Positions 18,742-38,509 of a stretch of DNA of 46,481 nucleotides are shown piece by piece. The stretch's first letter is position 1; each line of letters begins with the position of its first letter. The DNA comes from an uncultured Lachnospiraceae bacterium (GTDB taxonomy: Bacteria > Bacillota > Clostridia > Lachnospirales > Lachnospiraceae): contig CACYPS010000032.1 in NCBI GenBank assembly GCA_902776305.1, positions 1 to 46,481 on the forward strand, read 5' to 3'. The translations under genes and the position numbers were made by a program. The notes under the pieces are model-generated. The model did not search any database, was not told the origin of the DNA, and worked only from the letters and a program-made list of their open reading frames with translations.

Positions 18742-18747
18742 TAAGTA

Positions 18748-23225: not shown

Positions 23226-23279
23226 TCAAAGTTAAGAAGTGTTTCTTTTTAAAGAAGCACCCCTGACATAAAAAGCCAT

Positions 23280-23300: not shown

Positions 23301-23315
23301 TTTTGTGTCTTTCAG

Positions 23316-23330
23316 TGGTCTTTTATGGAC
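23316..23330 (+). other. att-core-like site, copy 3
   Basis: TGGTCTTTTATGGAC, 16 bp past the arm-type repeats of the deleted integrase; see the copies at 12991, 16369 and 45073. Confidence 0.35.
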
Positions 23331-23732: not shown

Positions 23733-23770
23733 CCACATTTCTCTTAATGAAAAGAGAAAATGTGGTTTTA
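23733..23770 (+). terminator. Stem-loop terminator
   Basis: CCACATTTCTCTT (23733-23745) pairs with AAGAGAAAATGTGG (23752-23765), then TTTTATT. Separates the integrase remnant from the following relic genes. Confidence 0.7.
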
Positions 23771-23837
23771 TTGCAAAAAAATCTCAATTCTCTTTTTCTA
23801 AATTGCATCTCGTAACACCAAAAAACGGAGGTTACAG

Positions 23838-24113
23838 ATGAATCGAAGTAAATCCCCACCAGTGAATCTGGAAAAATACCTGGAAGGTAAAAGACACCGC
23901 TTTTGCACTTACGCTCAGGGTGCAAGGCTTTACGCAATGGCGTACTGGTCCTTTGTCACCATGGCCAAGCAGGCAGGGGCCAACATCAAGCTCAGGAAAA
24001 CAGCTTTAGTAGATCTGGATATACTTGATGACTACATCGAAAATGAATGCAACGAAGAAAGAGAGGATGCCTTCTCTTGGAATGATGACCATAAATGCTC
24101 TGGCTTGTGCTGA
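23838..24113 (+). pseudogene. DUF6462 protein fused out of frame to parA remnant
   Basis: The first ~75 residues (FCTYAQGARLYAMAYWSFVT, AGANIKLRKTALVDLDILDD) are a complete-looking DUF6462 excisionase-like protein. After about 24065 the DNA is parA sequence, read here in a wrong frame (SWNDDHKCSGLC), so the C-terminus is foreign. The junction shows a deletion that joined this gene to the middle of parA. Confidence 0.65.
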
Positions 24114-24486
24114 CAGCGTACTTATTCCGGTACAGGCCGCATATCTTCCTGTAAAGGGCCTTCAGCAGCTTATTAAGACCATAGGAAGAGTTAAGCGTCA
24201 GCTGAACCAGAAGCTGGAAATAGAGGGAATTCTCATCACTATGGTGGATAACAGAACCAATTATGCAAAAGATATATCGGCTCAGATCTACGAAGCGTAT
24301 TCATCCACCATAAATGTTTTTGAGACTGAGATCCCGCTTTCTGTGAGAGCCGCTGAGATTAGTGCTTCCGGAAGTAGTCTCTACGTCTATGATCCAAAAG
24401 GAAAAGCAGCATCGGCATATTCATCATTTATAAGGGAGGTAATAAATAATGGCACAAAGAGTTGGTCAGAAAGTAAAGCTGTCTAG
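24069..24486 (+). pseudogene. parA: ParA fragment (C-terminal half)
   Basis: Starting abruptly at PSLGMMTINALACADSVLIP, the frame covers the second half of ParA, including GILITMVDNRTNYAKDI and PLSVRAAEISASG, and overlaps the parB fragment. The Walker A and switch regions are missing. It resembles the parA at 13244-14026 but keeps more family-typical residues where they overlap. No start codon with a ribosome site; deletion remnant. Confidence 0.8.
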
Positions 24487-24787
24487 TATAGATGAGCTCC
24501 TCGGTGTTCCTAGCACCGAGGGGACTGTAGATCTCGATGTTATGACTATTTATCCCTTTGAGAATCATCCTTTTAAGGTTGTGGATGATGAAAAAATGGA
24601 TGAACTTGTGGAAAGTATCAAGGAAAGCGGAGTTCTTACTCCTGTTCTTGTTAGACCGGATGATGAAGGAACTTATGAGATGATTTCCGGACATAGAAGG
24701 CTCCACGCGGCTAAAAGAGCAGGACTTCGTAAGATTCCTGCAATCATCAAGGAAATGACAAATGATGATGCCACGATTGCCATATGA
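24449..24787 (+). pseudogene. parB: ParB fragment (N-terminal third)
   Basis: A 112-codon frame with a normal start (AGGGAGGTAATAAT upstream) that matches the ParB N domain: YPFENHPFKVVDDEKMDELV, then GTYEMISGHRRLHAAKRAG and KEMTNDDATIAI, where it stops at 24787 just before the expected TNLQR-type box. The helix-turn-helix and dimer domains are absent. The sequence after the stop belongs to unrelated DNA, so a deletion joined it to the next operon. Confidence 0.8.
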
Positions 24788-24920: not shown

Positions 24921-25484
24921 ATGGATTCTGTTTTGTACAAACCAAGAAATGAATGGCTGCAAATTCAACTACGGCGTTACCGGGATGCTTTAGCTCTTAG
25001 CGGAAGTATGGTGATTGTTTTATCCGTTTGGGACATCATTAAACTATTTATCAGTTTCTTCCTGGGTGAAAATACGATTTCTGAAATCATTGAAAGCATT
25101 ATGGCTCAGGGTGCCTACGAAGTTGCCGGCGCCGGACATGAAAAAGTGATGAGAGCCTTATTATGGGCAGGCTTTATGGTTGTGATTCTGATTTTCAGTC
25201 TGGTCATTTTTTTGTTCCACTATTATATTGGCATGAGTGCATTCCGGACCGGACGTCAGACAGTGAAGAAGGATAAACGCTTTTACCTTACGCTGACGGT
25301 ATTCTGCGTAGTTGTGTCAGCGGTGCTGATCATATTGAACTCCATAAGTTTTATGACGTCCACAGATTCGAGTGCAAACGTTGATATAGCATTTTTCATC
25401 ATGGAAGTAACAGCATTTATAAACTATATTTTCATTTTATATGCGGCAGGAAAGATTAAAAAATTGGAAAAGGCGGGGGCGTGA
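24921..25484 (+). CDS. Membrane protein, four predicted helices
   Basis: A 187-aa protein behind AGGGAGTG. Hydrophobic segments at about 30-48, 80-105, 120-145 and 155-175 predict an integral membrane protein; the N-terminus carries a basic amphipathic stretch. I do not recognise the family. It is the first of eleven same-strand genes with gaps of 0-100 bp and is separated by 4 bp from the next, so it is presumably co-transcribed with the peptidase/exporter set. Confidence 0.65.
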   Translation: MDSVLYKPRNEWLQIQLRRYRDALALSGSMVIVLSVWDIIKLFISFFLGENTISEIIESIMAQGAYEVAGAGHEKVMRALLWAGFMVVILIFSLVIFLFHYYIGMSAFRTGRQTVKKDKRFYLTLTVFCVVVSAVLIILNSISFMTSTDSSANVDIAFFIMEVTAFINYIFILYAAGKIKKLEKAGA

Positions 25485-25488
25485 GGAA

Positions 25489-26019
25489 ATGACAGTTTGG
25501 CAGAAGCTTAGAAAAATCCTCTTGGGAATTGCTATGATCCTGATTGGAGCAGCCCTGTTCATCTTTGGAGAAGAAGCATATATGGCTATCATAGGTTTCT
25601 TTTCTCTGGCGCTTGAAATCATGGGGATTCGCATGCTCTGGTTTTACTTTAGGATGGCAAGGCATATGGTCGGCGGACGGAATATTCTTTTTCGAGGAAT
25701 ACTCTTCTTTGATTTTGGTGTGTTTACCGGTTCCCTTGTCTGGGTTCCCAGGATGTATGTACTTATTTATCTCGCAGGGACTCTGGCTTTTTCAGGTGCA
25801 GTGAACATAATTGGAGCCAATGAGGCCAGAGGAATTCAGAGTTCCTGGAAACTCAAGGCATTTGAAGGAACAGTAAAAGTGCTGATTGCGGTCTGCTGTC
25901 TGATCTTTATGAGAAGCGGAGCAAGAGTAGTGGATATCTGTGCTGTCGGTTTCATTTTCTCGGCAGTTATGAATATTGCTAATGCATTCCGCAGGCAGCA
26001 GGTTATTACGATAGATTAG
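25489..26019 (+). CDS. HdeD/DUF308-like membrane protein
   Basis: A 176-aa protein, started at 25489 (GTGAGGAA upstream). Six short hydrophobic helices with the repeated glycine pattern (ILLGIAMILIGAALFIF, FRGILFFDFGVFTGSLV, VLIAVCCLIFMRSGARVVDI) resemble the HdeD/DUF308 family, implicated in acid or envelope stress in other bacteria. Assignment is by pattern only. Second gene of the operon. Confidence 0.55.
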   Translation: MTVWQKLRKILLGIAMILIGAALFIFGEEAYMAIIGFFSLALEIMGIRMLWFYFRMARHMVGGRNILFRGILFFDFGVFTGSLVWVPRMYVLIYLAGTLAFSGAVNIIGANEARGIQSSWKLKAFEGTVKVLIAVCCLIFMRSGARVVDICAVGFIFSAVMNIANAFRRQQVITID

Positions 26020-26037
26020 TACAGGAGCAGAGACAAA

Positions 26038-27117
26038 ATGCAGGGAGATTTTCACTATTATGCAACCTACTGCGCTGCAGTGCTTGCAGGATACGATCAT
26101 AAAAACAGTGTCGATATTTGCCATGCAGCACAGCTTGTGGACCACTGCTCGCGCACCTGGCTGATAAAAGCCGGCGGCCCCACGCAGGCTGCCACAACAC
26201 AGCTTCAAGCTGAGCTTTTGCAGGCAAGGACTGATCCGATAGGGCTGTGCGATATAATAAGGATCTGGTCTTCTTTTCATTTCCTGCCGAGGGATCTGTA
26301 TGCTGATATCAACATGGGCTCACAGAACTATAAAGACAAATACCGCCTTATATGCGGGCCAAATGGCAATCTGCTTGTCGATACGGTTAAGCTTGCAAAG
26401 GGAAAAGGGACAGAAGCCGCAGGCATAGCGATGCATGTACTGGCAGACACCTGGGCACATACTTATTTTGCAGGTACACCGTCCCTTGTTATCAATAATA
26501 CGAACTGGTATTTTTATGAACTATTTCCGAGGGATGACGGGGAACCAGAACGCAGGCAGATAAAGTTCTCACATAACCCTTCTGCTTCGGAGGATGTGGA
26601 CAAGCCGGTATATGTTGGAAGCGTATACCAGTCAGATGAGAATTCAATCATGAATCTCGGTCATGGACGAGCAGGACATCTGCCTGACTACAGTTATATC
26701 CGGTATGTTTATTTGCCTGCCTGGGGCGGCTATAAAGAAATCGTGAAGGACAATCCTTATGACTATGAGCACGCATTTGCTCAGATGGTATATGCCCTAG
26801 GCTACCTTAACGGTGGGAGGGATGAGTTTGAAAAAGAGACCTATGCCACAGATAAGATTGCTCTACACATTGAAAGAATCCGGGAAATAATTACCAAAAG
26901 GCAGGTTGATGCTTCTAAAGACTGGAAGGCTTTTGGCGAAAGTCTTTCCGGAGAGACGATTCCGGATTTTGATAAGGACGAACATATAGCGGAATACAAA
27001 GCAGGAAATAGAGAAGATACATACCTGGGACGGTTTTTTCAAGCTGCTATTTCCCAGAAAAAAATGGTGTCATCAAGGATCATGGAATCAGGCAACCGTC
27101 TTGCAGGATTGGTATAG
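26038..27117 (+). CDS. DUF6765-family protein
   Basis: A 359-aa soluble-looking protein with no signal peptide. It opens MQGDFHYYATYCAAVLAGY and has AAQLVDHCSRTWLIKAGG and IAMHVLADTWAHTYFAG, features I associate with the DUF6765 family. Several conserved histidine/aspartate pairs (FHYYA, MHVLADTWAH, DYEHAFAQM) suggest a metal-binding hydrolase-like helical fold, but no activity is established. Third gene of the operon, 18 bp after the previous one. Confidence 0.65.
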   Translation: MQGDFHYYATYCAAVLAGYDHKNSVDICHAAQLVDHCSRTWLIKAGGPTQAATTQLQAELLQARTDPIGLCDIIRIWSSFHFLPRDLYADINMGSQNYKDKYRLICGPNGNLLVDTVKLAKGKGTEAAGIAMHVLADTWAHTYFAGTPSLVINNTNWYFYELFPRDDGEPERRQIKFSHNPSASEDVDKPVYVGSVYQSDENSIMNLGHGRAGHLPDYSYIRYVYLPAWGGYKEIVKDNPYDYEHAFAQMVYALGYLNGGRDEFEKETYATDKIALHIERIREIITKRQVDASKDWKAFGESLSGETIPDFDKDEHIAEYKAGNREDTYLGRFFQAAISQKKMVSSRIMESGNRLAGLV

Positions 27118-27204
27118 CTTAAATAGGAAATAGTGGACTTCGCGGAATTGATCAAGCTTCTTATGAAACAGCAGTAATAAATCAGATAAGAGAAAGGATA
27201 GCTA

Positions 27205-29370
27205 ATGAGAAACAAAGAATGGAGCGTATTCAGAAAAACTACAGCTGTGATTCTTACAGCTACTTTGGTGGTCATATCTGCGGGCTGTGGAAAAGGCGGG
27301 AACGCGGCTGAATCTTATCTATCGAATGAGGATGGCTCTGGTTCTGTTCCTTCCGGAATTCCCGGGGGAGGAAAATGGGTTGATTCTGACGTTGTATTCA
27401 CAGTCAGGTCTGAGGATAATATACGTTTTCAGGATGATTTTGCAGCGGCTGCCAATAAAGATTATATTGCATCTGCTGTTCTGGACCCCGCATATGAAGA
27501 GGCCAGTATATTTCTTGATGCAAATAAGCTGATGTATGAAAGATATATGGAGATTGCTTCTGATGAGGCTATGTCAGGTGATAATGCAGAAAGATATAAA
27601 GCATTGGTTAAACTGTATTCTGATTGGGATGAGCGAAACAAGCTTGGAGTAAAGCCTCTTGAAAAGTATATTTCGGATATACAGAGCATATCCTCTATAA
27701 GTGAACTTACGCAGTACCAGGGGAACACTACGAGAAATCCCTTTGGGCTGGGGCTGTTAAATCCGGAAGCTGTGAGTACACAATTGCAGTTCCCGGACAA
27801 GAGCACGTTAAAGCTTCAGGCTCCAAAGCTCTCTCTGGGGTCTAATTCCTCATATGTGGAGTATACAAGCAATACATTAGCAGCTAAAGAAAAAAACGAT
27901 GATGTAATCTTCTATTTCCTTGGAAGGCTTGATTTTTCTGAAAAAGAGATCAAGGCTATCCTGAAAGGCAATTACCGTATAGAGACTTTTATCGCAAGAA
28001 ACAGTAATATCGAAAACTTCGGTGTTGGGGAGATGTTTACACAGGCTCAGAACACCAGGGAAGGGCTGAAGACTTTACAAGGGGATTATCCGCTTTTACA
28101 GATATTGGATAGCAGAGGCTATTTGAAATGTGACAGCTTTTATGTGGATTATTCCTATCTGCAGTCCTTACATAAGATCTATACCGAAAAGAACCTTGAA
28201 GATATCAAGTCATTCCTCATTGTACAGACCATTGATTCAGTTAAATACCTTCTCGACCGCGAATCATATGAAAAGATGGTTAAGCTGTATATGAACGGCG
28301 CTGATAACTATGAGGGAATTTCAGATAGCCAGAATAGTGTCCTTTTTAGAAATGACATTAAGATCTGTGGCTTTTTACCATTGCTGGATACTTTGTATCT
28401 GGAAAAATATTATACAGATGACGAAAAAATAGCTAAGATAAATGAATTTACAAGTGCACTGATAAAGGCGTATGCACAAATACTGGATGAAGAAGACTGG
28501 ATGTCAGAAGAAACAAGGACAGCTGCAAAGGGGAAGCTGCAAAATATGGCTTTGCATCTTGTAAAGCCTGATAATATCGCCGATTATTCAGCTGCGGACA
28601 TAAAGTCCTATGAAGAAGGAGGAAATCTTGTAGAAGCTGCTGCTGAGGGCAGACGGATGATAGAAACTCACATGGCAGTTAAAAGCGCTGATTCAAATTG
28701 GGATAGATATAAATGGGATATTTACGATGCTTCCAGAACTACTACCGAAGTCAATTGTGTGTACTATTGCAACGAAAATGGCATCTATATAATGGCGGGA
28801 TATCTGGCTATGTGCGATGCTGCTTTTGGAGAAGATGCATCACTTGAGCAGTTTGCAGGCATCGTAGGAACTACGATTGGCCATGAGATAACCCATGGAT
28901 TTGATTCAAACGGAACAAAGTTTGATCTTTACGGGCGTCAGTTTGATGATGATAAAATCCCCATTGATTGGATGACACCACAGGACAGGTCAAAGATGGA
29001 TGAAAAAGCATCAAAGCTGGCAGGATACTTCTCACTGGCAAGGCCGATTCCGGGGCAGCAGAAGGTAAATGGAAATGCCGTAAAAGATGAGGCTATTGCT
29101 GATATGGGAGGTGTCAAATCAGTACTTTATGCGGTAAGGGAAATACCTGATTTTGATTATGATGAGTTTTTCAGAGCCTTTGCAAGGCAATATGCGGAGC
29201 AGACAACTGAGGAAAATGAACTTGATACCATGAAAAGCGACATGCATCCGCTTCCGTTCCACAGGGTAAATATTGTTCTTCAGCAATTTGATGAATTTAT
29301 AGAAACCTATGATATAAAGCCGGGAGATGGAATGTACTTAAGCCCGGAAAAAAGAGTCAATGTCTGGTGA
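27205..29370 (+). CDS. M13-family metallopeptidase lipoprotein, copy 1
   Basis: A 721-aa surface peptidase of the neprilysin/PepO (M13) family. Lipobox SAGC gives lipidated C28. The M13 N-domain fills about 75-500 and the catalytic domain about 525-721: zinc motif HEITH (560-564) in GTTIGHEITHGFD, third ligand E629 in DEAIADMGG, and substrate-binding NCVYYCNENG upstream. The C-terminus MHPLPFHRVNIVLQQFDEF is a standard end, lacking the usual CXXW. M13 enzymes cut oligopeptides of up to about 40 residues. Here it is anchored outside the membrane next to an ABC exporter and a second M13 enzyme, so it probably degrades or matures extracellular peptides. Confidence 0.9.
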   Translation: MRNKEWSVFRKTTAVILTATLVVISAGCGKGGNAAESYLSNEDGSGSVPSGIPGGGKWVDSDVVFTVRSEDNIRFQDDFAAAANKDYIASAVLDPAYEEASIFLDANKLMYERYMEIASDEAMSGDNAERYKALVKLYSDWDERNKLGVKPLEKYISDIQSISSISELTQYQGNTTRNPFGLGLLNPEAVSTQLQFPDKSTLKLQAPKLSLGSNSSYVEYTSNTLAAKEKNDDVIFYFLGRLDFSEKEIKAILKGNYRIETFIARNSNIENFGVGEMFTQAQNTREGLKTLQGDYPLLQILDSRGYLKCDSFYVDYSYLQSLHKIYTEKNLEDIKSFLIVQTIDSVKYLLDRESYEKMVKLYMNGADNYEGISDSQNSVLFRNDIKICGFLPLLDTLYLEKYYTDDEKIAKINEFTSALIKAYAQILDEEDWMSEETRTAAKGKLQNMALHLVKPDNIADYSAADIKSYEEGGNLVEAAAEGRRMIETHMAVKSADSNWDRYKWDIYDASRTTTEVNCVYYCNENGIYIMAGYLAMCDAAFGEDASLEQFAGIVGTTIGHEITHGFDSNGTKFDLYGRQFDDDKIPIDWMTPQDRSKMDEKASKLAGYFSLARPIPGQQKVNGNAVKDEAIADMGGVKSVLYAVREIPDFDYDEFFRAFARQYAEQTTEENELDTMKSDMHPLPFHRVNIVLQQFDEFIETYDIKPGDGMYLSPEKRVNVW

Positions 29371-29394
29371 TATCTGTTAGGAAGGAGACAAACT

Positions 29395-30240
29395 ATGGGA
29401 TCAGAGACTTCAAATGCAGCAATAAGGCTTGATAACATAATCAAAAGCTATGGTAAACATGACGTACTTAAAGGTGTCACCATGCAGGTGAATAAGGGAG
29501 ATATCTACGGCCTGGTAGGCAAGAACGGAGCAGGTAAAACCACTATTTTTAAGATGATTCTGGGACTGTCAGAATACACTTCAGGCAATGTTTCCATAGC
29601 CGGTTCCCGGAACCGAAAAGAGCTGTTTGCAAACAGATCAAAGGTAGGCTTCTTTGTCGGATCCAATTTTTATGGTTATCTTTCCGGCAGGGCGAACCTC
29701 GAATACTACGCAGCAGCTAAGGGGCTTAAGGGAAAAGCGTTAAAGGAGGAAGTGGACCGTGTTCTAAAGGTTGTTGGTCTTGTAGACGGTAAGGAAAAGC
29801 AGAAAGCTAAGGGCTATTCCCTTGGAATGAAACAGCGTCTCGGAATAGGCAATGCAATCCTTGGTAATCCGGATATTCTCATTCTGGATGAGCCGACCAA
29901 CGGTCTTGATCCTCAGGGAATAGCAGATATTCGTCATATGATACGGCGGTTTAGAGATGAGTTTGGCATGACAGTCATAGTTTCAAGCCATATTCTGGGA
30001 GAACTGGAAAATACCGCGGACCGTTTCGGTATAGTACATGAAGGCGTTATAGCAAAAGAAATCACACAGGAGGACCTTTCTGCAAAGCGCCCGGAAGTGG
30101 AACTTACAGTCTCAGCCGGAAATTTGGAAAGAGCTAAAAGTATTCTTGCAGAGAATGGTATTGATATTCTTAAAGAAGGAAAAGAGAAAGTTACTCTGGA
30201 AGATTATTACTTTGAACTCATTGGAGGATCTGCAGAATGA
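29395..30240 (+). CDS. ABC transporter ATPase (BcrA/LanF-like)
   Basis: A 281-aa ATPase: Walker A GKNGAGKT (about 43-50), ABC signature YSLGMKQRLGIG, Walker B ILILDEPTNGLDPQG and the H-loop SSHIL. The signature variant SLGMKQRLGI and the overall size match the BcrA/LanF group that powers export of peptide antibiotics for self-protection. It overlaps the first permease gene by 4 nt. With two about 245-aa permeases it makes a LanFEG-like transporter. RBS GAAGGAGAC precedes it. Confidence 0.9.
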   Translation: MGSETSNAAIRLDNIIKSYGKHDVLKGVTMQVNKGDIYGLVGKNGAGKTTIFKMILGLSEYTSGNVSIAGSRNRKELFANRSKVGFFVGSNFYGYLSGRANLEYYAAAKGLKGKALKEEVDRVLKVVGLVDGKEKQKAKGYSLGMKQRLGIGNAILGNPDILILDEPTNGLDPQGIADIRHMIRRFRDEFGMTVIVSSHILGELENTADRFGIVHEGVIAKEITQEDLSAKRPEVELTVSAGNLERAKSILAENGIDILKEGKEKVTLEDYYFELIGGSAE

Positions 30241-30968
30241 GAAATTTGTTAAGAGCGGATTTGAAGCGCATCTTTCGGGTTGGTCTTATTTATATAGGGC
30301 TTTTGCTGGCACTGATCTATATTTCATATACGGTGCTTGAAGGTGTTGTAAATGATGGCTCAATCGGACTGGTCAGAGGTGTACAGAAGTCGCTTAGCGG
30401 GGCGCCTATAGCTCTTTTTATTGTTTTTCCCACTTTCTATGCTGTTTTTGCTCATGAGCTTTCCTCAAAGTCCATGCAGGCTGTACTTGGTCATGGCATA
30501 ACAAGGGATAAGCTCATAGTTGCAAAGCTTCTTGATGCGGCAATTGTACTTCTTTGCGTGTACCTGGTCATCATTGCGGTAACCCTTGTAGTAATAAACG
30601 GAGAATCAGCAATTATATTAAGCTCGCAGCAGCAGACGAACCTTGTTATTTTTATCATACTGAGGTGGCTTAGACATTTTGGCTACATTGTCTTTTCAGC
30701 TATGATCATGTACATTTCAGGCTCCACGGTTCTTGGTATAGTCGCTTGTGTAGCATTTACGGTTGTGTTTAGACTTGTGTTTAACATGATAGAATTTTTT
30801 TCCTCACTGTCATTATATGACTATACCTTTGATGGTCTTTTGGACTGGGCATATACCGGAATAGAGATGGAAGCTTTCCCGTGGCAGCTTCTTCCGGCAG
30901 CCTGCTATCTCTTGGCTGCACTGGCGATCACTACCTATTTCTTCCGGAGAAAGGAGTTTGACTTTTGA
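30237..30968 (+). CDS. ABC transporter permease 1 (ABC-2 type)
   Basis: A 243-aa permease with about six transmembrane helices, overlapping the ATPase by 4 nt. It contains the pattern FAHELSSKSMQAVLGHGITR, then KLIVAKLLDAAIVLL, which corresponds to the LanE/LanG-type loop (Dxxx..S..Q..GRGISR) seen also in the partner permease. Size and position equal LanE in lantibiotic immunity transporters. Likely forms a heterodimer with the following permease. Confidence 0.84.
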   Translation: MRNLLRADLKRIFRVGLIYIGLLLALIYISYTVLEGVVNDGSIGLVRGVQKSLSGAPIALFIVFPTFYAVFAHELSSKSMQAVLGHGITRDKLIVAKLLDAAIVLLCVYLVIIAVTLVVINGESAIILSSQQQTNLVIFIILRWLRHFGYIVFSAMIMYISGSTVLGIVACVAFTVVFRLVFNMIEFFSSLSLYDYTFDGLLDWAYTGIEMEAFPWQLLPAACYLLAALAITTYFFRRKEFDF

Positions 30969-31711
30969 AAAATCTTATTTTGGCAGATGTAAAAAGAATA
31001 CTAAGAAAGCCGGCATATTGGATTGTGCTTGCAATATGTCTGTTAATTTCGTTTTTCTGGACCTTGGGTGCAAAAAGAAATGGAACCGTAAGCGGCCTTA
31101 CTTTTGCCACTAATCAGGGAACTGCTATAAATACAATGAATCTTTTTATAGGGATTGCTATTTATGTGAGCGTCTACGCCGATGAGTTTTCGTCTAATTC
31201 TATGCAGTGCCTTATTGGAAGAGGAATTTCAAGAAAAAGACTCCTTATCGCCAAGTTCATTAACTGCGTGATCATCACCTTTATTTCTTATGGAATCTAT
31301 GCCCTTTTTATCACCTTAACAGGTCTGATAATGGGCGCAAACATGAATATGTCAGAGAGCAGCTTTTTGTACAGTACGATATTGACCAATGCTTTTCTTA
31401 TCCTGGGTTATGCAACCATATCCATGATTATTCTTTTCTGGAGTAAGAATGTTGCCTATGCAACTTTGGTGGATGCATTTCTTCTTTTTGCGGGAGATAC
31501 ACTGCTGAGCGGCCTGAATATGATTCCGGTGATAAAATTCTGGCATATAGACAGGCACGTTTTTTCACATGCCCTTGCATGTGCCAAAGTAGATCTGCTT
31601 CTAACTGGTGGAACAGCAATATTTACACTCCTTTGGCACGTTGCAAAAATCTGTGTTATTTCGATTATTCTGGCATATCTGCTCTTTAGGAAAAAAGAGC
31701 TGGATTTCTGA
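30965..31711 (+). CDS. ABC transporter permease 2 (ABC-2 type)
   Basis: A 248-aa permease, overlapping permease 1 by 4 nt. Six predicted helices and the shared loop YADEFSSNSMQCLIGRGISR, homologous to the same loop in permease 1 (tandem paralogues). With the ATPase it forms an exporter similar to LanFEG, which removes lantibiotics from the membrane. No start ATG: the ORF opens with TTG 30965 within the overlap (GGAG upstream), which is plausible for coupled translation. Confidence 0.84.
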   Translation: MKNLILADVKRILRKPAYWIVLAICLLISFFWTLGAKRNGTVSGLTFATNQGTAINTMNLFIGIAIYVSVYADEFSSNSMQCLIGRGISRKRLLIAKFINCVIITFISYGIYALFITLTGLIMGANMNMSESSFLYSTILTNAFLILGYATISMIILFWSKNVAYATLVDAFLLFAGDTLLSGLNMIPVIKFWHIDRHVFSHALACAKVDLLLTGGTAIFTLLWHVAKICVISIILAYLLFRKKELDF

Positions 31712-31744
31712 TTTTTATTGGCGGAGAAGAAAGGAATTTCAAGC

Positions 31745-33913
31745 ATGAAAAAGAGAGCGGTATCTCTGATTATATGTATGGCTATGGTAGGGACTATTAT
31801 GGCCTGTGGTAATAACGCGGCTCCTTTGGAGGTTGTTGATGAAGCGCCGCAAGCAATATCAGTGGTGGAAGAAAGCACTGAAAATGAAGAAACAGATATG
31901 TCCGTCAGTGAAGGAAATTCAGACGCACCGGCAGGTGAAGAGGAAAAAGAGACGGTAACGACAGGAGGATATCCGTGGATAAACTCGGACATAAAAGAGA
32001 ATGTTACTCCTGACATGGAGGTTTCTCCTAAGGATGATTTTCATCTCTATGTAAATAAAGGATGGCTTTTGGAGAATGATATCCCAGATGGATATACGAT
32101 ATGGTCTCATTACCATGAGCGGGAAACTGAAATAAAAAAACAGTGCATGGAGCTGCTTAAAGATGAGACCATAGAAGGCCATGATGCTGAAGTAGTCCGC
32201 ACATATAATAATCTGCTTTTAGACTGGAATGCCAGAAATGAAGCCGGATATACGGATATAAAAGAAGGCTATGAGAAAATTCTCGAAGCAAGTAGTGTTG
32301 AAGACATAAGCGGACTTATCACGGACAAAGATACGGCTTTTGAGTATTACAATTTTATGGCATATGCTGTAAGAAGCGGCCTTAATGATCCGAGTAAATA
32401 CCTGCTTTGCGTGGATACACCGACGCTTATTCTGAAAGATTCTGCTGAGTATTCTAATAGGACAGAAATTGGAGATATTTATTATAATTCGGGAAAAGAA
32501 TTGTTTTCGTTTATGTCGGGGAAACTGGGAATGTCATCGGAGGATGCTGTTAAGTATTTTGATGCAGCGATTGAATTGGAAGGAAAGCTTTCAGGATCAA
32601 TATATACCACAATGGAGAAGAAAGGTGAAGGATATCTGGATAAGGTAAACAATGAGATGAGCTTTGAGGAACTGGCTGCACTTTCTGTGAAGCTTCCTAT
32701 AGCAACCATTATTGAGGCGGTCGGATATAAATATGATGGCATATATCTTGTTACTACTCCTGATTATTTTAAAACTCTTGATGAGGTGTACACAGATGAC
32801 AATTTGGATGGCATCAAGGGAATCTTGCTATTCAATTATTTTTCAAAGTATGCAAAATACCTCGATAAAGAAACTTACGATAAAACAAATGAGTTGAATG
32901 CCAAGTATCTTGGTACAAGTGGGACATTATCCGATAAAGAGAACGCTTATAATATTGTCACAGATTTACTTCCGGTATCAATGCAGAAAGTATACATTGC
33001 AAAGTACGGATCTGAAGAAGACAAAAAGAGAATGGAAGATTTGTGTCAGCAGGTTATCGATACTTATAGAGAGCTGCTTAATGAGAATAGCTGGGCTTCG
33101 GATGAAGTTAAGAAAAAAGCCATTGAAAAACTGGATAAGATAGCCATTCATGCCGCTTACCCGGATAAATTCAGAGACACTTCCGATATTGATATTTCTG
33201 ATTGTTCACTTATTGAAGCTACCAGGCGAATCTGGATGGCTGAGACAAAGCATGATATGAGTTGTTTAGGCCAAAACCTTGATAAGGACATGTGGGCAGA
33301 AGGCTTTAATATTTTAACCTGCAATGCCGGGTATGATCCGTCTGCCAACACTATTAACATGATCATAGGAATGATGGGAGAACCTTTCTATTCAAGTGAT
33401 ATGGACGTGGAAGAGATGTATGCCTCAATTGGAGCATTCTGGGTGGGACATGAAGTGTCACATGCTTTTGATAACTATGGATCACAGTTTGATGCTGAAG
33501 GAAAATATAAAGACTGGTGGACAGAAGATGATAAGGCAGAATTTATGAGACGTGTAAAAAAGCTGGATGATTACCTTGATAGTATAGTTGTCTTTGGAGA
33601 TTACAATTGCATCGGTACGAATATTGATACCGAAATGGTGGCTGATATAACCGGACTTCAATGCGCTCTTAGGATGGCTTCAAAAGTAGATGGATTTAAT
33701 TATGATAAATTTTTTACAAAGTATGCTCAGATCAATGCTAATCTTGCTATTTACAGTTCTGAATTAACTAACCTTTTACAGGATGAGCATCCAAGAGACT
33801 ATCTAAGAACAAATGTCCCTGTTCAACAGTTTGACGAGTTTTATGAAACCTACGATGTAAGAGAAGGCGATAATATGTACCTTGCTCCTGAAGACAGGCT
33901 TTTGATCTGGTGA
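31745..33913 (+). CDS. M13-family metallopeptidase lipoprotein, copy 2
   Basis: A 722-aa protein. Start at 31745 behind GAAAGGA; lipobox MACG gives C21, then a low-complexity acidic linker (about 25-80). M13 N-domain about 90-500, catalytic domain about 530-722: HEVSH (569-573) in VGHEVSHAFDNYGSQFD, E630 in TEMVADITG. Divergent from copy 1, indicating an old duplication rather than a recent one and probably different peptide preference. It lies directly after the exporter genes, so the two peptidases bracket the transporter. Confidence 0.9.
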   Translation: MKKRAVSLIICMAMVGTIMACGNNAAPLEVVDEAPQAISVVEESTENEETDMSVSEGNSDAPAGEEEKETVTTGGYPWINSDIKENVTPDMEVSPKDDFHLYVNKGWLLENDIPDGYTIWSHYHERETEIKKQCMELLKDETIEGHDAEVVRTYNNLLLDWNARNEAGYTDIKEGYEKILEASSVEDISGLITDKDTAFEYYNFMAYAVRSGLNDPSKYLLCVDTPTLILKDSAEYSNRTEIGDIYYNSGKELFSFMSGKLGMSSEDAVKYFDAAIELEGKLSGSIYTTMEKKGEGYLDKVNNEMSFEELAALSVKLPIATIIEAVGYKYDGIYLVTTPDYFKTLDEVYTDDNLDGIKGILLFNYFSKYAKYLDKETYDKTNELNAKYLGTSGTLSDKENAYNIVTDLLPVSMQKVYIAKYGSEEDKKRMEDLCQQVIDTYRELLNENSWASDEVKKKAIEKLDKIAIHAAYPDKFRDTSDIDISDCSLIEATRRIWMAETKHDMSCLGQNLDKDMWAEGFNILTCNAGYDPSANTINMIIGMMGEPFYSSDMDVEEMYASIGAFWVGHEVSHAFDNYGSQFDAEGKYKDWWTEDDKAEFMRRVKKLDDYLDSIVVFGDYNCIGTNIDTEMVADITGLQCALRMASKVDGFNYDKFFTKYAQINANLAIYSSELTNLLQDEHPRDYLRTNVPVQQFDEFYETYDVREGDNMYLAPEDRLLIW

Positions 33914-34012
33914 TCCATCAGCCGGAGCATTATTTTGGCAGAAAAGCTCTGACTGAGTATATCCATAATTTGTATTAAGTTATAGCAACCAACAAAGAAA
34001 GGGGGAAAAATT

Positions 34013-34822
34013 ATGATTTCAATTATCAGTTTTGTTCTGTGTTTAATCATTATTGGTATTCTTTACAGGAATATGATTGCCTGGGAAGGAGACTATCGGA
34101 TTTCAAGAGGACAAGCTTTGCTGCCGGTGTTTCTTGGACTTTTATCTGTGCCGATTTCATTTATTTTCGCTTTAATAATTGGGTTGTGCTTCAGGTCGGT
34201 AACCGGGTTTGCTCCTTCAGAGGGACCGGCATTACTTGCCAGTTTCAACCATGCGCTTTTCTCAGCGGCTATGAGTGAAGAGCTCGCAAAACTACTCATT
34301 ACACTTATTGTATTATGCATTTTCAGGAAAAAATTGAGAAATGTATATGAATATATGCTGATAGCAGGGGCTGTCGGATTCGGATTTACTCTTATAGAAG
34401 ATTTTGTATATAGTGCAGGGCTTTCAGGTCTTGTGATGAGACTGCCGAATATAACATTGCACATGATGCTTGGGCTTGCCATGGGAAGGCATCTTGGACT
34501 TGCCAGATATAACAAAGTAACAGGCAGTGGGGCTGTAATAAAAGAATATCTTCTTGCATATTTTGTCCCCGTATTCTGTCATGCTGTTTTTGACTTTTTT
34601 GCTGCAAACAAGCTAATACATGCCGGGGATGATGTAGAGGTTGCGACAGCAGAAATACAAAGATCAATATATATTGGGGTTGGTATGGTGTTAATTGCGG
34701 TAATTCCGGTATTTATATTTCAGATATACTTATTCAAACGCCTTAAGAAAAACGCCTCAAATCTTGTAGCTCTTTCCTTTACAGATGCCGGAAATGCGGA
34801 ACAGGAGAACACTAATGCTTAA
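34013..34822 (+). CDS. PrsW-like intramembrane metalloprotease
   Basis: A 269-aa protein with about seven transmembrane helices. Conserved PrsW motifs: MSEELAKL (E89, E90), GFGFTLIEDFVYS (E129, D130), TLHMMLGLAMG and FCHAVFDF. PrsW-type proteases cut anti-sigma factors or process membrane proteins, and in Bacillus PrsW responds to antimicrobial peptides through RsiW. No anti-sigma gene is adjacent. Ribosome site AAGGGGGA is 9 nt upstream; it overlaps the next gene by 8 nt. Confidence 0.82.
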   Translation: MISIISFVLCLIIIGILYRNMIAWEGDYRISRGQALLPVFLGLLSVPISFIFALIIGLCFRSVTGFAPSEGPALLASFNHALFSAAMSEELAKLLITLIVLCIFRKKLRNVYEYMLIAGAVGFGFTLIEDFVYSAGLSGLVMRLPNITLHMMLGLAMGRHLGLARYNKVTGSGAVIKEYLLAYFVPVFCHAVFDFFAANKLIHAGDDVEVATAEIQRSIYIGVGMVLIAVIPVFIFQIYLFKRLKKNASNLVALSFTDAGNAEQENTNA

Positions 34823-35648
34823 AAAGTATATTGAATTTATGAAAAGATCTCCGCTGATAACTGCTGCAATCTGCATAGTATACGTGGTTGTGTGTTTCAA
34901 GACAGTACCTACAGAGACAAATTTCCAGTTCTTTATAGTAAGGACTATGCTCTGCGGAGCGGTGTGCTTTTTCCTCTACCAGATATCCGGAGATAAGACA
35001 CTTGCCTCCTGCTATGTTTCTACAGGATATGTCATAAAGAACACCATTGGATTTTTAGTGATGTCCCTTATCATGGGCTCTGTATTGCTGATTTCGAATA
35101 TAGAAGAAAAGGTACCCCTGAAGGAAAATCCGATATTGGGATTTATCATTATATTTCTTATGTTTATTTCTGTGGGACTTTTTGAGGAACTGGCTTTCAG
35201 GGCAGTTATAAACGATGCGATTATCTATAAGTTCAGGGAAAAGAAATATGTCTTTGTTCTGAGTGCAGTGGTTTCCTCACTGGTATTCGGAGCTGTACAT
35301 GTTTTGGGATTTGATCCCTCATCGCCTGTTGCATGGGGACAGGCGGTCGCCAAAACACTGGAATCAGGCGTTTTTGGTCTGGCCCTCCTTATACTGTATT
35401 GGAAGACAAGAAATATCTGGGCCTGCGGCCTGGCTCACGGACTGTTTGATTTTTTTGCAGGTTATACAGAAGGCCTGTTTGTTCCGGTTGGAGATTCGGG
35501 TTCATCGTATATTAATACCGGTGAAGATGGCGTGAGAATCCTTATCACATACTTTATAATTGCTGCAATAAATGCAGTTCTGACGTTTATTGTGTGGAAG
35601 AAAGTCGGTAAGACTATTGATTTTGAAAAGATCAGACGAGAATGGTAA
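34815..35648 (+). CDS. CPBP-family intramembrane protease 1
   Basis: A 277-aa multi-pass protein of the CPBP (Abi, CAAX-protease and bacteriocin-processing) family. Motif 1 is EELAFRA (E124, E125), motif 2 VFGAVHVLGF and motif 3 CGLAHGLFDFFA. Members act as bacteriocin self-immunity proteins or peptide processors in Gram-positives. Started at 34815 with ACAGGAGAAC upstream; overlaps the PrsW gene by 8 nt and is followed by a paralogue after 12 bp. Confidence 0.86.
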   Translation: MLKKYIEFMKRSPLITAAICIVYVVVCFKTVPTETNFQFFIVRTMLCGAVCFFLYQISGDKTLASCYVSTGYVIKNTIGFLVMSLIMGSVLLISNIEEKVPLKENPILGFIIIFLMFISVGLFEELAFRAVINDAIIYKFREKKYVFVLSAVVSSLVFGAVHVLGFDPSSPVAWGQAVAKTLESGVFGLALLILYWKTRNIWACGLAHGLFDFFAGYTEGLFVPVGDSGSSYINTGEDGVRILITYFIIAAINAVLTFIVWKKVGKTIDFEKIRREW

Positions 35649-35660
35649 GGAGAATTGGTT

Positions 35661-36470
35661 ATGGAAAACAAAAAAGTAAGGAAACATTCATTATGTGAAA
35701 AAAATGCTGTAATCGCAATGATACTGACAGTTCCTCTGGGTTTATTAACTCAATTGAGCGGCCAGCCACAGGGAGTAGTAAGCGCACTTATTGTCTCCGC
35801 TCTGTCCCTGGTTCTTCTGATCATTTATAATAAGTGGTTTTCGCCTGAATTTGATGGCGTGTTTAAGGCTCATGTTCCGGTAAAAGAGATACTTATGGTA
35901 TCCTCTGCGATGGCAATCCTTATTATCGGATGCATAATCATAAATGCTATATATAGTGGACTTGCTTTCAAACCATCAGTTTCTTTCGTGTGCCTGGCAC
36001 TAATGGCTGGCATTAGTGAGGAGACCATTTTCAGGGCGATGCTTATTCCTATAGGAATGAGATATCTGAAGGTGAAGAATAGGGCAGTGGCAGCAGTAAT
36101 TATCTCATCTGTCATCTTCGGACCGCTCCATTTGACAAATATATTCGTAGGAGCAGATCCTGTCATGACTCTGATACAGGCATTCATGGCAACCTGTGGC
36201 GGTTTTGTTCTCGCCGGAATATATCTGAGGACCGGCTCGGTAATCCCGGGAATGATTGCTCACGCTGTGTATGATTTTATCAATTTTGTTACAGATCCAA
36301 CCATCAATGAAAAGGGCGTTGTAGTTTCTGATAGCGGGAATGTTGGTATTTCGTATTATGTGATTATACTGGCGGTTTCGGTGACGCTTCTTGTAGCAGG
36401 ATGCTATCTTATCAGAAAGACTAAACAGGATACAATAGAGAATATATGGAAGATCAAGTGGAGCAACTGA
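35661..36470 (+). CDS. CPBP-family intramembrane protease 2
   Basis: A 269-aa paralogue of the preceding gene. Motifs: EETIFRA (E120, E121), IFGPLHLTN and GMIAHAVYDFINF. Start at 35661 fits AAGGAGAA 7 nt upstream. It is the last gene of the eleven-gene run; no terminator hairpin with a T tract follows, only an inverted repeat at 36501-36533. The pair of CPBP proteases next to a LanFEG-like exporter argues for peptide immunity or processing. Confidence 0.86.
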   Translation: MENKKVRKHSLCEKNAVIAMILTVPLGLLTQLSGQPQGVVSALIVSALSLVLLIIYNKWFSPEFDGVFKAHVPVKEILMVSSAMAILIIGCIIINAIYSGLAFKPSVSFVCLALMAGISEETIFRAMLIPIGMRYLKVKNRAVAAVIISSVIFGPLHLTNIFVGADPVMTLIQAFMATCGGFVLAGIYLRTGSVIPGMIAHAVYDFINFVTDPTINEKGVVVSDSGNVGISYYVIILAVSVTLLVAGCYLIRKTKQDTIENIWKIKWSN

Positions 36471-36500
36471 TTTCAATAGCGAGCAAAGATGGCTTTCTGA

Positions 36501-36533
36501 TTCGCAAAAATAGTAAAATTTCAAATTTGCGAA
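36501..36533. repeat. Inverted repeat TTCGCAAA
   Basis: TTCGCAAA (36501-36508) and TTTGCGAA (36526-36533) after the CPBP gene; no T tract. May be an operator or weak terminator. Confidence 0.35.
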
Positions 36534-36584
36534 ACAAACAAAAACACTGATAGCCATATATTTTGGAAGTTATGATATGTGTGC

Positions 36585-36640: not shown

Positions 36641-36927
36641 ATGAAGACAAATGGTGGATTTCTTGTTACAAAAATAAAACAGCTGGGTGATCGTATATTT
36701 GAAAGGAAAAAAACGGACTGATAAGCCGCAAAACGGATGAAGCTGATAAGAGAAAAACTCTTCTGTTCCTCACAGATAAAGCCAAAGAACTTAAAGAAGC
36801 TTATGACTCCGTATCCAATGAGATGGGGAATATTTATTATCGTGATTTTACGGATAAAGAGATTCTTCAGTTTGAAGAGTATCTTAACCGCATCAGGGTA
36901 AACCTTGAGGAATGGAGTGACAAATGA
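36641..36927 (+). pseudogene. MarR-family regulator with internal deletion
   Basis: The first 23 codons (MKTNGGFLVTKIKQLGDRIF) are the N-terminus of the MarR regulator that accompanies the radical-SAM mobile pair. The sequence then jumps, out of frame, to GLISRKTDEADKRKTLLFLT and runs to a normal end at 36927 (overlapping the next ATG). About 55-60 residues including the recognition helix are gone, leaving the operator without a working cognate repressor unless another copy exists. Expression of the pair may be derepressed. Confidence 0.85.
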
Positions 36928-37622
36928 GTATCTGTATTAAAGATCAGATTCAGAACATGAATCTTGTTATAGGGTGCACTGTTGGATGTCCGTACTGCTA
37001 TGCCAGAAACAATACGAGGCGTTATCACATCATAGATGATTTTGAAAAGCCACAGTTTTTTCAAGGAAAGCTTCGTATGATGGAAAAGAAAAAGCCGCAG
37101 AATTTTCTGCTGACCGGCATGAGCGATCTCTCGGGCTGGCATGAGGAATGGAGAGAGGAAGTCTTTAAAAAGATAGCAGAGAATCCTCAGCACCAGTTTC
37201 TTTTTCTTACCAAACGACCGGATCTTCTGTCTTTTGAAACAGATCTTGATAATGCATGGTTTGGCGTTACAGTTACGAGAAAGTCTGAGTTATGGCGTAT
37301 TGATGCACTGCGGAGCAATGTGAAGGCAAAAAAATATCATGTTACCTTTGAGCCTTTGTTCGATGATCCGGGTAAGGTTGATCTTACAGGCATTGACTGG
37401 ATTGTGGTGGGAACCATGACAGGTGCAAAGAGCAGGACTGTTAAAACAGATCCCGGGTGGGCTTATTCATTGACAGAACAGGCTCATGAACTGAACATTC
37501 CTGTATTCTGGAAAGAAGATCTTGTTCCGATTATGGGAGAAGAAATGATACAGGAAATGCCGGATGCTTTTAACAAAGTGCTGGAGGAACAGAGGATATG
37601 GAACAACCAGAAATCAAAGTAA
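36924..37622 (+). CDS. Radical SAM mobile pair protein A
   Basis: A 232-aa protein with the radical-SAM cluster motif CTVGCPYC (C18, C22, C25). The rest (LLTGMSDLSGWHEEW, FLTKRPDLLSF, HVTFEPLFDDP) resembles DUF5131/phage Gp37-like proteins. It overlaps the marR remnant by 4 nt (ATGA) and protein B by 25 nt. This MarR + A + B set is a recurrent mobile module in gut Firmicutes. The substrate is unknown; DUF5131 and spore-photoproduct-lyase relatives suggest a nucleic-acid or base modification, but that is inference. Confidence 0.84.
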   Translation: MSICIKDQIQNMNLVIGCTVGCPYCYARNNTRRYHIIDDFEKPQFFQGKLRMMEKKKPQNFLLTGMSDLSGWHEEWREEVFKKIAENPQHQFLFLTKRPDLLSFETDLDNAWFGVTVTRKSELWRIDALRSNVKAKKYHVTFEPLFDDPGKVDLTGIDWIVVGTMTGAKSRTVKTDPGWAYSLTEQAHELNIPVFWKEDLVPIMGEEMIQEMPDAFNKVLEEQRIWNNQKSK

Positions 37623-38509
37623 ATCATATAGAAACAAAAAGTGTAATGACAAAATCGAATACTCCTATTGGAGGATATTCGGTGAATCCCTATGTGGGGT
37701 GTCCCCATGCCTGTAAATACTGCTACGCATCTTTTATGAAACGCTTTACAGGGCATACGGAGGAATGGGGAACTTTCATGGATGTGAAAGACTGGCCTGA
37801 AATAAAGAATCCAAAGAAGTATGCCGGCCAGAAGGTAATCATTGGAACAGTTACGGATGGTTATAATCCGCTAGAGGAAACATATAAAAATACAAGAAGA
37901 CTTCTGGAAGAACTAAAGGACAGTGGTGCGGACATACTTATCTGCACAAAGTCAGACCTTGTACTAAGAGATCTGGATCTGCTAAAAGAGATCAATGAAA
38001 ATAGCAGACTTACAGTATCATGGTCAATCAATACTCTCGATGAAGAGTTTAAAGATGATATGGATGCGGCAGTAAGCATAGAAAGAAGGCTTGCTGCAAT
38101 GAAAGAGGTATATGCGGCAGGCATTCGTACAATTTGCTTCATTTCACCCGTGTTCCCGGGGATTACGGATATAGAAGCAATCATAGACAGGACAAAAGAT
38201 CAGTGTGACCTTGTATGGCTTGAGAATCTGAATCTTCGCGGAGGTTTTAAGGCAGATATCATGAAATACATTTCCGATAAACATCCGGATCTGGTGCCGC
38301 TGTATGACGAAATTTATAACAAAAAGAACCGCAGCTATTTTGAAGCGCTGGAAAAGAAAGCAGAAGAGCTGGCTAAAAAGTATGATTGCAGGTTTGTTGA
38401 TAATGAAACTCCGTATGAGAGAGTAGAGAAAGGACATCCAACAATTTACCACGAAGAAGTAAGAGGAACTGCCAATAGTGGAAAGAGAAATGTAATACAT
38501 AATCCTTGA
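37598..38509 (+). CDS. Radical SAM mobile pair protein B
   Basis: A 303-aa radical SAM enzyme with CPHACKYC (C35, C39, C42), followed by a TIM-barrel with GTVTDGYNPLEETYKNTR and a DILICTKSDLVLRDLDLL strand, as in spore photoproduct lyase and ELP3-like repair enzymes. It pairs with protein A, which lacks the full barrel. The two probably form one complex. Overlap of 25 nt with A indicates coupled translation. The gene ends the operon. Confidence 0.86.
   Translation: MEQPEIKVNHIETKSVMTKSNTPIGGYSVNPYVGCPHACKYCYASFMKRFTGHTEEWGTFMDVKDWPEIKNPKKYAGQKVIIGTVTDGYNPLEETYKNTRRLLEELKDSGADILICTKSDLVLRDLDLLKEINENSRLTVSWSINTLDEEFKDDMDAAVSIERRLAAMKEVYAAGIRTICFISPVFPGITDIEAIIDRTKDQCDLVWLENLNLRGGFKADIMKYISDKHPDLVPLYDEIYNKKNRSYFEALEKKAEELAKKYDCRFVDNETPYERVEKGHPTIYHEEVRGTANSGKRNVIHNP

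What the first reader, a model, noticed from the sequence alone, without database searches (positions are those of the whole stretch)
24921..36470. Eleven-gene peptidase/exporter/intramembrane-protease operon
Two divergent M13 peptidase lipoproteins bracket a LanFEG-like exporter, followed by PrsW-like and two CPBP proteases and preceded by three uncharacterised genes; several overlaps show coupling. M13 enzymes cleave small peptides outside the cell; LanFEG and CPBP proteins protect from bacteriocins; PrsW senses antimicrobial peptides in Bacillus. There is no precursor, LanB/C/M or regulator. This may be an undescribed stand-alone system to resist or consume antimicrobial or host peptides.
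Basis: inference. Interest (0 to 1): 0.75.

Follow-up and report, generated by a model that had tools for sequence, protein, structure and literature searches.

The report
Surface peptidase with partner peptide pump
Gut and rumen Clostridia share a small gene set that pairs a membrane-anchored peptide-cutting enzyme with a membrane pump, often beside exchangeable helper proteases; it looks like a mobile defence against small membrane-active peptides, but that has not been tested here.

Summary
The eleven same-strand genes are real. They are not one conserved system but an assembly of modules. The conserved core is four genes, 27205-31711: an M13 peptidase lipoprotein, an ABC ATPase and two permeases. 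ATPase-linked M13s form nearly one clade in a 95-row tree (2 label changes; shuffled mean 21.6), and the core also occurs in other families of the order and class. It is in 15 of 79 genomes of the genus holding Butyrivibrio sp. VCB2006, often beside extra M13s, PrsW, CPBP proteases or a TM/DUF308/DUF6765 module in varying order; the exact eleven-gene order was not seen again. The window copy moved recently: 97% DNA identity to VCB2006 over 8.5 kb, against 73% for rpoB. The transporter resembles LanFEG but misses its curated cut-off and lacks the Q/E-loop residue. One of 36 core loci lies behind a RiPP cluster. Best reading: extract a membrane-active peptide and cut it at the surface, like NSR/NsrFP with unrelated parts. 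Function is inferred (about 0.5); the core is well supported. My paper searches found no description.

The parts
24921..25484 (+). g01: small membrane protein (about 4 TM), first gene of the TM-DUF308-DUF6765 accessory module
   Evidence: no Pfam family above cut-off and no NCBIfam family; homologues beside DUF6765 in 14 of 20 DUF6765 loci
25489..26019 (+). g02: DUF308 membrane protein (about 6 TM); the listed ORF starts at 25441, 25489 follows a better ribosome-binding site
   Evidence: PF03729 34.7 bits; beside DUF6765 in 16 of 20 loci
26038..27117 (+). g03: DUF6765 protein, no TM segment by the hydropathy count, many invariant His/Asp/Asn
   Evidence: PF20551 231 bits; alignment A2; AlphaFold2 pLDDT 79.8, no PDB fold match
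27205..29370 (+). g04: M13a, surface lipoprotein zinc endopeptidase; CORE gene 1
   Evidence: PF01431/PF05649; HEITH/EAIAD and lipobox Cys28; tree
29395..30240 (+). g05: ABC ATPase with Gly at the Q/E-loop position; CORE gene 2
   Evidence: PF00005; TIGR03740 below cut-off; loop alignment; tree
30237..30968 (+). g06: ABC-2 type permease 1; CORE gene 3
   Evidence: PF12679 25.8 bits, cut-off 27.2; about 6 TM, 4-bp overlap
30965..31711 (+). g07: ABC-2 type permease 2; CORE gene 4
   Evidence: PF12730 33.1 bits, cut-off 27; model resembles the NosDFY and PmtCD permeases
31718..33913 (+). g08: M13b, second M13 lipoprotein, from a different, mostly stand-alone M13 clade; accessory (an internal Met, residue 10, may be the true start)
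   Evidence: HEVSH/EMVAD and lipobox; tree
34013..34822 (+). g09: PrsW-like intramembrane protease; accessory
   Evidence: PF13367 59.2 bits; NF033739 38.6 bits against cut-off 225; EELAK
34785..35648 (+). g10: CPBP intramembrane protease 1; accessory (start probably about 30 bp further in)
   Evidence: PF02517 58.3 bits; motifs
35655..36470 (+). g11: CPBP intramembrane protease 2; accessory
   Evidence: PF02517 68.1 bits; motifs

Best explanation
The finding is a conserved four-gene cassette (M13 lipoprotein, ABC ATPase, two ABC-2 permeases) with an exchangeable set of accessory genes, carried here on a mobile-element-rich island. Most likely it protects the cell from small, largely unmodified, membrane-active peptides made by neighbours or the host. 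The ABC transporter pulls the peptide out of the membrane and releases it outwards; the M13 enzyme, tethered to the outer face by its lipid, cuts it there. Extra M13 enzymes would widen the range of peptides cut, and PrsW/CPBP proteases would clear peptide or fragments inside the membrane or relay a stress signal. Shown: gene content, conserved linkage, intact catalytic motifs, purifying selection on the genes tested, recent transfer between genera. Inferred: direction of transport, substrate class, division of labour, role of the accessory proteases. Unknown: what the TM/DUF308/DUF6765 module does.
For: Linkage: 24 of 143 distinct M13 ORFs in the loci held at that point have a >=55% identical ATPase 4-138 bp downstream on the same strand. 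On a tree of 95 rows the label 'linked' needs 2 changes against a shuffled mean of 21.6, 0 of 500 as low; linked ATPases form one clade with three plasmid ATPases, support 100, and the groups L039/L069/L075/L194, L037/L040/L190, L065/L067 and L059/L058/window recur in both trees. All 14 linked M13s of A3 keep HExxH, the second Glu/Asp and Cys28 of the lipobox. Among NCBIfam models the ATPase scores best to the lantibiotic-protection model. The permease model resembles PmtCD and NosDFY; PmtCD exports amphipathic peptides (recalled; NCBIfam names PmtC a phenol-soluble-modulin exporter). In the window plus 15 genomes of one genus the core order holds 16 of 16 (perm2 cut by contig ends in 3); 11 of 16 have a CPBP or PrsW gene beside it and 5 of 16 an extra M13. 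A relative has the core 108 bp behind an NHLP/CefA-type RiPP precursor. Two relatives have a LytS-type kinase and regulator directly before the core. M13a has about three to five times the dN of the ATPase. Recent transfer. Precedent that peptidase plus ABC raises nisin MIC: PMC8003753 (abstract and passages).
Against: No phenotype or substrate is known. RiPP genes were found beside only 1 of 36 core loci, many with short flanks, and there a strong terminator-like hairpin (9934-9965) lies between precursor and M13, although only about 20 nt separate its tail from the M13 start, which leaves no room for a promoter after it. The ATPase fails the LanF tests. The permease fold match does not discriminate (NosDFY ranks above PmtCD). 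5 of 16 cores in the genus show no intramembrane protease beside them (one at a contig end), and kinases are rare, so neither is essential to the core. All genes tested are under purifying selection; there is no sign of positive selection. M13 enzymes are not known to open lanthionine rings (recalled).
Confidence: 0.5

Rival explanations
1. Peptide production rather than defence: intramembrane proteases cut signal-peptide remnants of lipoproteins (including the M13s' own), the ABC transporter exports the linear peptide, and M13 trims or later destroys it outside, as Eep and EcsAB/PptAB do for linear signalling peptides.
For: A CPBP or PrsW gene adjoins 11 of 16 cores in one genus; both M13s are lipoproteins; Eep/EcsAB precedent (PMC7157817, abstract and passages; PptAB papers seen in a search listing only); kinase/regulator pairs directly before two cores.
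Against: No M50/Eep-type site-2 protease among the eleven genes; 5 of 16 cores have no intramembrane protease beside them (one at a contig end); no room for a peptide gene between core genes (one 24-bp gap, two 4-bp overlaps).
Confidence: 0.2
2. Dedicated immunity or maturation arm of RiPP/bacteriocin clusters: M13 removes leaders or destroys stray product and the ABC transporter protects the producer; stand-alone copies such as the window are cast-off or immune-mimicry copies.
For: L059: NHLP exporter, rSAM/SPASM, PoyD-type epimerase and NHLP/CefA precursor directly upstream of the core, same strand.
Against: 1 of 36 core loci only, by homologues of the L059 genes and a Cys-motif scan; hairpin between the units; the core clade is diverse and the other loci show no RiPP genes.
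Confidence: 0.12
3. Envelope housekeeping: the ABC-2 transporter drives an extracytoplasmic partner protein (as NosFY with NosD) or clears membrane peptides made by the cell itself; M13 is a scavenger of debris peptides; no antimicrobial is involved.
For: NosDFY ranks first in the fold search of the permease; the same ATPase clade pairs with a YxeA/DUF1093 protein instead of M13 on three plasmids.
Against: Patchy distribution (15 of 79 genomes in a genus, 12 of 47 of the good ones) and recent transfer across genera fit a niche trait better than housekeeping.
Confidence: 0.1
4. The part outside the four-gene core is chance accretion on a genomic island, and the eleven genes have no joint function (compatible with the best explanation for the core alone).
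For: The exact eleven-gene order was found in no other locus examined; the TM/DUF308/DUF6765 module has M13a within about 1.5 kb in only 2 of 20 DUF6765 loci; integrases and an IS lie around.
Against: The same accessory families recur beside the core in different orders: a CPBP or PrsW in 11 of 16, the DUF6765 module in 4 of 16 loci. No formal test against random neighbours was made.
Confidence: 0.25

Closest known systems
NSR / NsrFP / NsrRK nisin resistance operon (Streptococcus agalactiae) and its Corynebacterium counterparts
   Same: Surface peptidase plus ABC transporter in one operon, in non-producers, often with a two-component system; peptidase and transporter add up in MIC tests (PMC8003753 passages; PMC4828448 passages).
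   Different: NSR is an S41 serine peptidase and NsrFP is BceAB-type; here the peptidase is M13 zinc-dependent and the permeases are short ABC-2 proteins.
LanFEG / LanI lantibiotic immunity (NisFEG-NisI, NukFEG-H) and stand-alone CprABC
   Same: One ATPase, two dissimilar permeases and a surface lipoprotein (PMC4239024 passages).
   Different: The lipoprotein is an enzyme, not a binder; the ATPase misses the TIGR03740 cut-off and lacks the Q/E-loop acid; no lanthipeptide genes seen.
PmtABCD phenol-soluble modulin exporter (Staphylococcus aureus)
   Same: Similar permease fold and ATPase similarity (NF047568 134 bits, cut-off 375); handles amphipathic peptides (recalled).
   Different: No peptidase partner (recalled); different gene set.
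Eep/EcsAB and PptAB linear-peptide export
   Same: Intramembrane protease plus ABC exporter acting on lipoprotein-derived peptides (PMC7157817 passages).
   Different: No M50 protease here; operon has M13 lipoproteins and two permeases.
PepO / neprilysin-type M13 peptidases
   Same: M13 N and C domains, HExxH and second Glu.
   Different: Lipoprotein with fixed ABC partner; NF052391 PepO equivalog score 156 and 260 against cut-off 1000.

Membership tests
LanFEG | one ATPase with two dissimilar ABC-2 permeases | tested here: met
   L039, L069, L075 and L194 show a single permease
LanFEG | curated LanF model TIGR03740 above cut-off | tested here: not met
   203.7 bits against 309.75; 0 of 4 matches in the own genome pass
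LanFEG | Glu in place of the Q-loop Gln (E-loop; hallmark recalled, not found in a paper) | tested here: not met
   Gly in all 39 rows of >=55% identity (36 M13-linked incl. repeats of the same gene, 3 YxeA-linked); Glu in 5, Asp in 2, Gln in 3, Ser in 1 of the 11 other rows
LanFEG | linked lanthipeptide biosynthesis or LanI | tested here: not met
   none among the window proteins scanned; relatives were searched only for homologues of the L059 RiPP genes and a Cys motif: 1 of 36, not lanthipeptide type
NSR operon | S41 peptidase | tested here: not met
   peptidase is M13
NSR operon | BceAB-type FtsX permease | tested here: not met
   two permeases of 243 and 248 aa, ABC-2 families, NosDFY/PmtCD-like fold
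NSR operon | two-component system in the locus | tested here: not met
   absent in the eleven genes; LytS-type kinase directly before the core in L037 and L039, and 2 kb away behind another ORF in L190, of 36 loci
NSR operon | confers peptide resistance | not testable with these tools
   needs MIC assays
M13 peptidase family | HExxH zinc motif and downstream Glu/Asp, M13 N and C domains | tested here: met
   both window proteins; motif invariant in 14 of 14 of A3
Eep-EcsAB/PptAB pathway | M50 site-2 metalloprotease | tested here: not met
   no M50 domain in the eleven proteins
Eep-EcsAB/PptAB pathway | ATPase orthologous to EcsA/PptA | not tested
   no EcsA/PptA model or sequence was compared
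Zinc-dependent phospholipase C fold (idea for DUF6765) | fold match to solved PLC/P1 nuclease | tested here: inconclusive
   model pLDDT 79.8, but no PDB match with E<=0.001; no sequence match

The most novel reading that the evidence does not exclude
The core is a distinct kind of ABC-coupled extracellular peptidase: an ABC-2 transporter with a Q/E-loop-less ATPase extracts amphipathic peptides from the membrane and hands them directly to a tethered M13 protease, with interchangeable intramembrane proteases and extra M13s as specificity modules, forming a mobile peptide-defence system of gut and rumen Clostridia that is separate from LanFEG, BceAB and NSR.
Probability: 0.35. Interest if true: 0.75.

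Novelty: new variant of a known kind. Interest (0 to 1): 0.52.

Why it matters
If true, it adds a peptide-resistance class built on a zinc endopeptidase lipoprotein and an ABC transporter, carried between genera of gut and rumen Clostridia. It would help explain who survives bacteriocins and host peptides there, give a marker for peptide-based competition in the rumen, and offer a test case for how an ABC exporter and a surface protease cooperate. The fixed M13-ABC linkage makes the substrate question directly testable.

Tried and rejected
LanFEG as a family label: rejected on the cut-off and the Q/E-loop. Zinc phospholipase C/P1-nuclease fold for DUF6765, suggested by its HxxxDxxxH pattern (recalled likeness): not supported by sequence or fold search; left open. 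A RiPP link as the general rule: rejected, 1 of 36 loci; L260's Cys-motif ORF behind perm2 is a TnpB, and L266's, 4 kb upstream of the core, is a B12-type radical SAM protein below every cut-off shown, the RiPP C-methyltransferase model included. TCS as a constant part: rejected (the scan saw LytS-type kinases only). The fold search of permease 2 did not separate peptide exporters from NosDFY. Literature: terms for M13 with LanFEG/CPBP, M13 with bacteriocin immunity in Butyrivibrio, neprilysin with lantibiotic resistance, M13 peptidase with AMP, and DUF6765 gave listings with no title or abstract that describes this cassette; the Hungate1000 bacteriocin paper has 0 hits for M13 and VCB2006 in its main text (PMC13289728, find passages). 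The library is open-access PMC only.

VCB2006's M13a was merged with the window's as a near-copy.
Full report
What is in the window. Both M13 proteins carry HExxH, the downstream Glu/Asp motif and a lipobox; PrsW and both CPBP proteins keep their active-site motifs. ATPase, perm1 and perm2 overlap by 4 bp each; larger gaps lie before M13a (87 bp) and before PrsW (99 bp). Pairwise dN/dS of g01-g07 among the window and three genomes of the VCB2006 genus, and of PrsW with VCB2006 and one of these, is 0.03-0.24 where dS could be computed. Several pairs had saturated dS and gave no ratio. M13b and the two CPBPs were not tested.

What is conserved. The window lies in G000:C32. In the loci held there were 143 distinct M13 ORFs; 24 have an ATPase of at least 55% identity to g05 4-138 bp downstream on the same strand (two more, in L151 and L198, have a different, 43% identical ATPase about 255 bp away). 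The own contig C34 carries a second, diverged set: M13 (33%), ATPase (64%), two permeases and a CPBP, preceded by a response regulator and a LytS-type kinase. The core also occurs outside the window's family: in families f11 and f17 of the order (L191-L194) and in f77 of the class (L241).

The tree of 95 M13 rows puts the 24 linked M13s in one clade with only two unlinked members (L054, L068); the label needs 2 changes against 21.6 in shuffles, 0 of 500 as low (quick method, branch support 93). L068 has an ORF of permease size, without a Pfam family, but no ATPase behind its M13. The linked ATPases form one clade with three plasmid ATPases, support 100, and four sub-groups recur in both trees. 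I read this as one old coupling that has been kept while the M13s fell to about 30% identity. M13b sits in a separate clade made mostly of stand-alone M13s, as does the third M13 (M13c) of Butyrivibrio sp. VCB2006.

The accessory part shuffles. In these 15 loci plus the window the order M13a-ATPase-perm1-perm2 holds 16 of 16, perm2 being cut by a contig end in 3 (L258, L265, L266). A CPBP or PrsW gene adjoins in 11 of 16; the other five are L189, L259, L260, L261 and L258, which ends at the contig end. An extra M13 is found in 5 of 16 (window, L256, L257, L262, L263). The TM/DUF308/DUF6765 module is in 4 of 16 (window, L053, L188, L189), with a DUF6765 remnant in L256. In L188 that module lies behind the core, in the window, L053 and L189 before it. 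Some copies are cut: M13b to 121 residues in L256, CPBP1 to 131 in L187. The exact eleven-gene order was not seen again. VCB2006 has M13a-ATPase-perm-perm-M13b-PrsW-CPBP1-M13c-CPBP2 and no g01-g03 in the locus.

The DUF6765 module is separate. PF20551 is found in 18 of 299 family genomes (17 over its cut-off) and 0 of 14 control genomes. Around the 20 loci returned, with about 1.5 kb on each side, a DUF308 gene adjoins 16 and a g01-like TM gene 14, M13a only 2 (G207 and the window), a CPBP gene 3 and a PrsW gene 1. AlphaFold2 on 18 sequences gave pLDDT 79.8 and pTM 0.86, but no fold in the PDB matched. Its function stays unknown; zinc binding is a guess from invariant His and Asp.

It moves. 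Window 27185-35671 is 97.0% identical in DNA to VCB2006 over 8,490 aligned bases, and 35643-36497 is 99.8%, while rpoB of the two genomes is 73% identical over 3,681 bases (a 411-base piece upstream of rpoB is 76%). In G193, a genome of a third genus, 33582-36572 reappears at 98-99% except for about 85 bases, with M13b reduced to a fragment (residues 622-722 of 731). The window copy lies among an IS66 transposase, three phage-type integrases (two with a Tn916-type DNA-binding domain, one of them short) and ParA/ParB genes, of which the second ParA lacks its N-terminal part. So this looks like island cargo.

What the transporter is. NCBIfam's best model for the ATPase is the lantibiotic-protection LanF model, but at 203.7 bits against a cut-off of 309.75. 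All 39 aligned ATPases of at least 55% identity have Gly at the Q/E-loop position and a loop one residue shorter; of the 11 others 5 have Glu, 2 Asp, 3 Gln and 1 Ser (the 39 rows include repeats of the same gene from different fetches). That Glu marks LanF is recalled; the two papers listed do not hold the term. The permease model resembles the NosDFY and PmtCD permeases at TM-scores of 0.60-0.66. Hence LanFEG-like, not LanFEG. The same ATPase clade serves an ATPase-permease-YxeA/DUF1093 set on plasmids of Paraclostridium and Monoglobus, where a different small partner takes the place of M13.

Clues to function. In L059 (Lachnospiraceae MAG RUI570) the core starts 108 bp after a precursor with an NHLP leader (40.7 bits, below the 50.9 cut-off) and a CefA-type Cys repeat (38.5 bits, cut-off 30), behind an NHLP exporter, a radical SAM/SPASM maturase and a PoyD-type epimerase, these three also below their equivalog or subfamily cut-offs. 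A strong hairpin lies between, yet its tail ends about 20 nt before the M13 start, so either the core is read through from the RiPP genes or its promoter lies upstream of the hairpin. This is 1 of 36 core loci scanned, many with short flanks (358 kb of flank in all), so it is a hint and no more. A LytS-type kinase lies directly before the core, with its regulator, in L037 and L039; in L190 one lies 2 kb away behind another ORF. M13a diverges three to five times faster in dN than the ATPase, which fits variable substrates but also weaker constraint in general.

Mechanism. I favour extrude-and-cut: the transporter removes an amphipathic peptide from the membrane and the lipid-anchored M13 cuts it. 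The closest parallel is NSR with NsrFP: in a Corynebacterium test the operon raised the nisin MIC four-fold with the peptidase and two-fold without it (PMC8003753, passages); and NisI with NisFEG, where lipoprotein and transporter cooperate (PMC4828448 and PMC4239024, passages). The defining parts differ: S41 against M13, BceAB or LanFEG against this ABC-2 clade. M13 enzymes favour small unmodified peptides (recalled), so linear bacteriocins or host peptides are likelier targets than lanthipeptides. The main rival is export of self-made linear peptides as in the Eep/EcsAB pathway (PMC7157817, abstract and passages).

Verdict. I rate it a new variant of a known kind, interest 0.52, with function at about 0.5.

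Noticed in passing
window 17773-21273: AAA ATPase and subtilase pair matching PADLOC IetA (230 bits) and IetS (114 bits), an anti-phage system candidate in the same window.
   Followed up: partly
window 7843-9671 (-): AbiEii toxin and AbiEi-type gene pair, strong PADLOC matches (394 and 267 bits).
   Followed up: partly
window 42860-44721: A second AbiE-like pair: AbiEi_2 domain (PF09952) and a weak AbiEii match.
   Followed up: no
window 10115-10211: pemK RNA (RF02913), 71.1 bits against a gathering score of 34.8.
   Followed up: no
window 11130-14762, 22524-24787, 41565-42617: Phage-type integrases (two with a Tn916-type domain) and ParA/ParB genes, the second set shortened (its ParB-like ORF is my label by likeness, not scanned); suggests accretion of related mobile elements around the operon.
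   Followed up: partly
L059:3231-9886: NHLP-type RiPP cluster with a 382-aa precursor ORF whose long core has Cys repeats (CefA-type model 38.5 bits, cut-off 30) and a PoyD-type epimerase (302.7 bits, cut-off 325).
   Followed up: partly
L057:18452-20632 (Butyrivibrio sp. VCB2006): A third M13 between CPBP1 and CPBP2; 36% identical to M13b.
   Followed up: partly
L207:8998-10950, L208:5524-7475, L209:8998-10967: Plasmid ATPase-permease-YxeA sets with an ATPase of the same Gly-loop clade but no M13 annotated nearby.
   Followed up: partly
L198:6240-12367 (G438): Two tandem M13b-type genes followed by an ATPase with a Glu loop and a membrane protein: a possible independent M13-ABC pairing.
   Followed up: partly
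L063:5116-9799: By eye, a response regulator, an ABC ATPase with a Glu loop, a membrane protein, a histidine kinase and an aminopeptidase-like gene lie on the same strand just before this core; not scanned with family models.
   Followed up: no
L260:7768-9159: A TnpB-family gene about 130 bp behind perm2 of the core.
   Followed up: yes
window 36924-38509: DUF5131 and radical SAM gene pair just downstream; DUF5131 matches PADLOC candidate models PDC-M30B/M41B.
   Followed up: no
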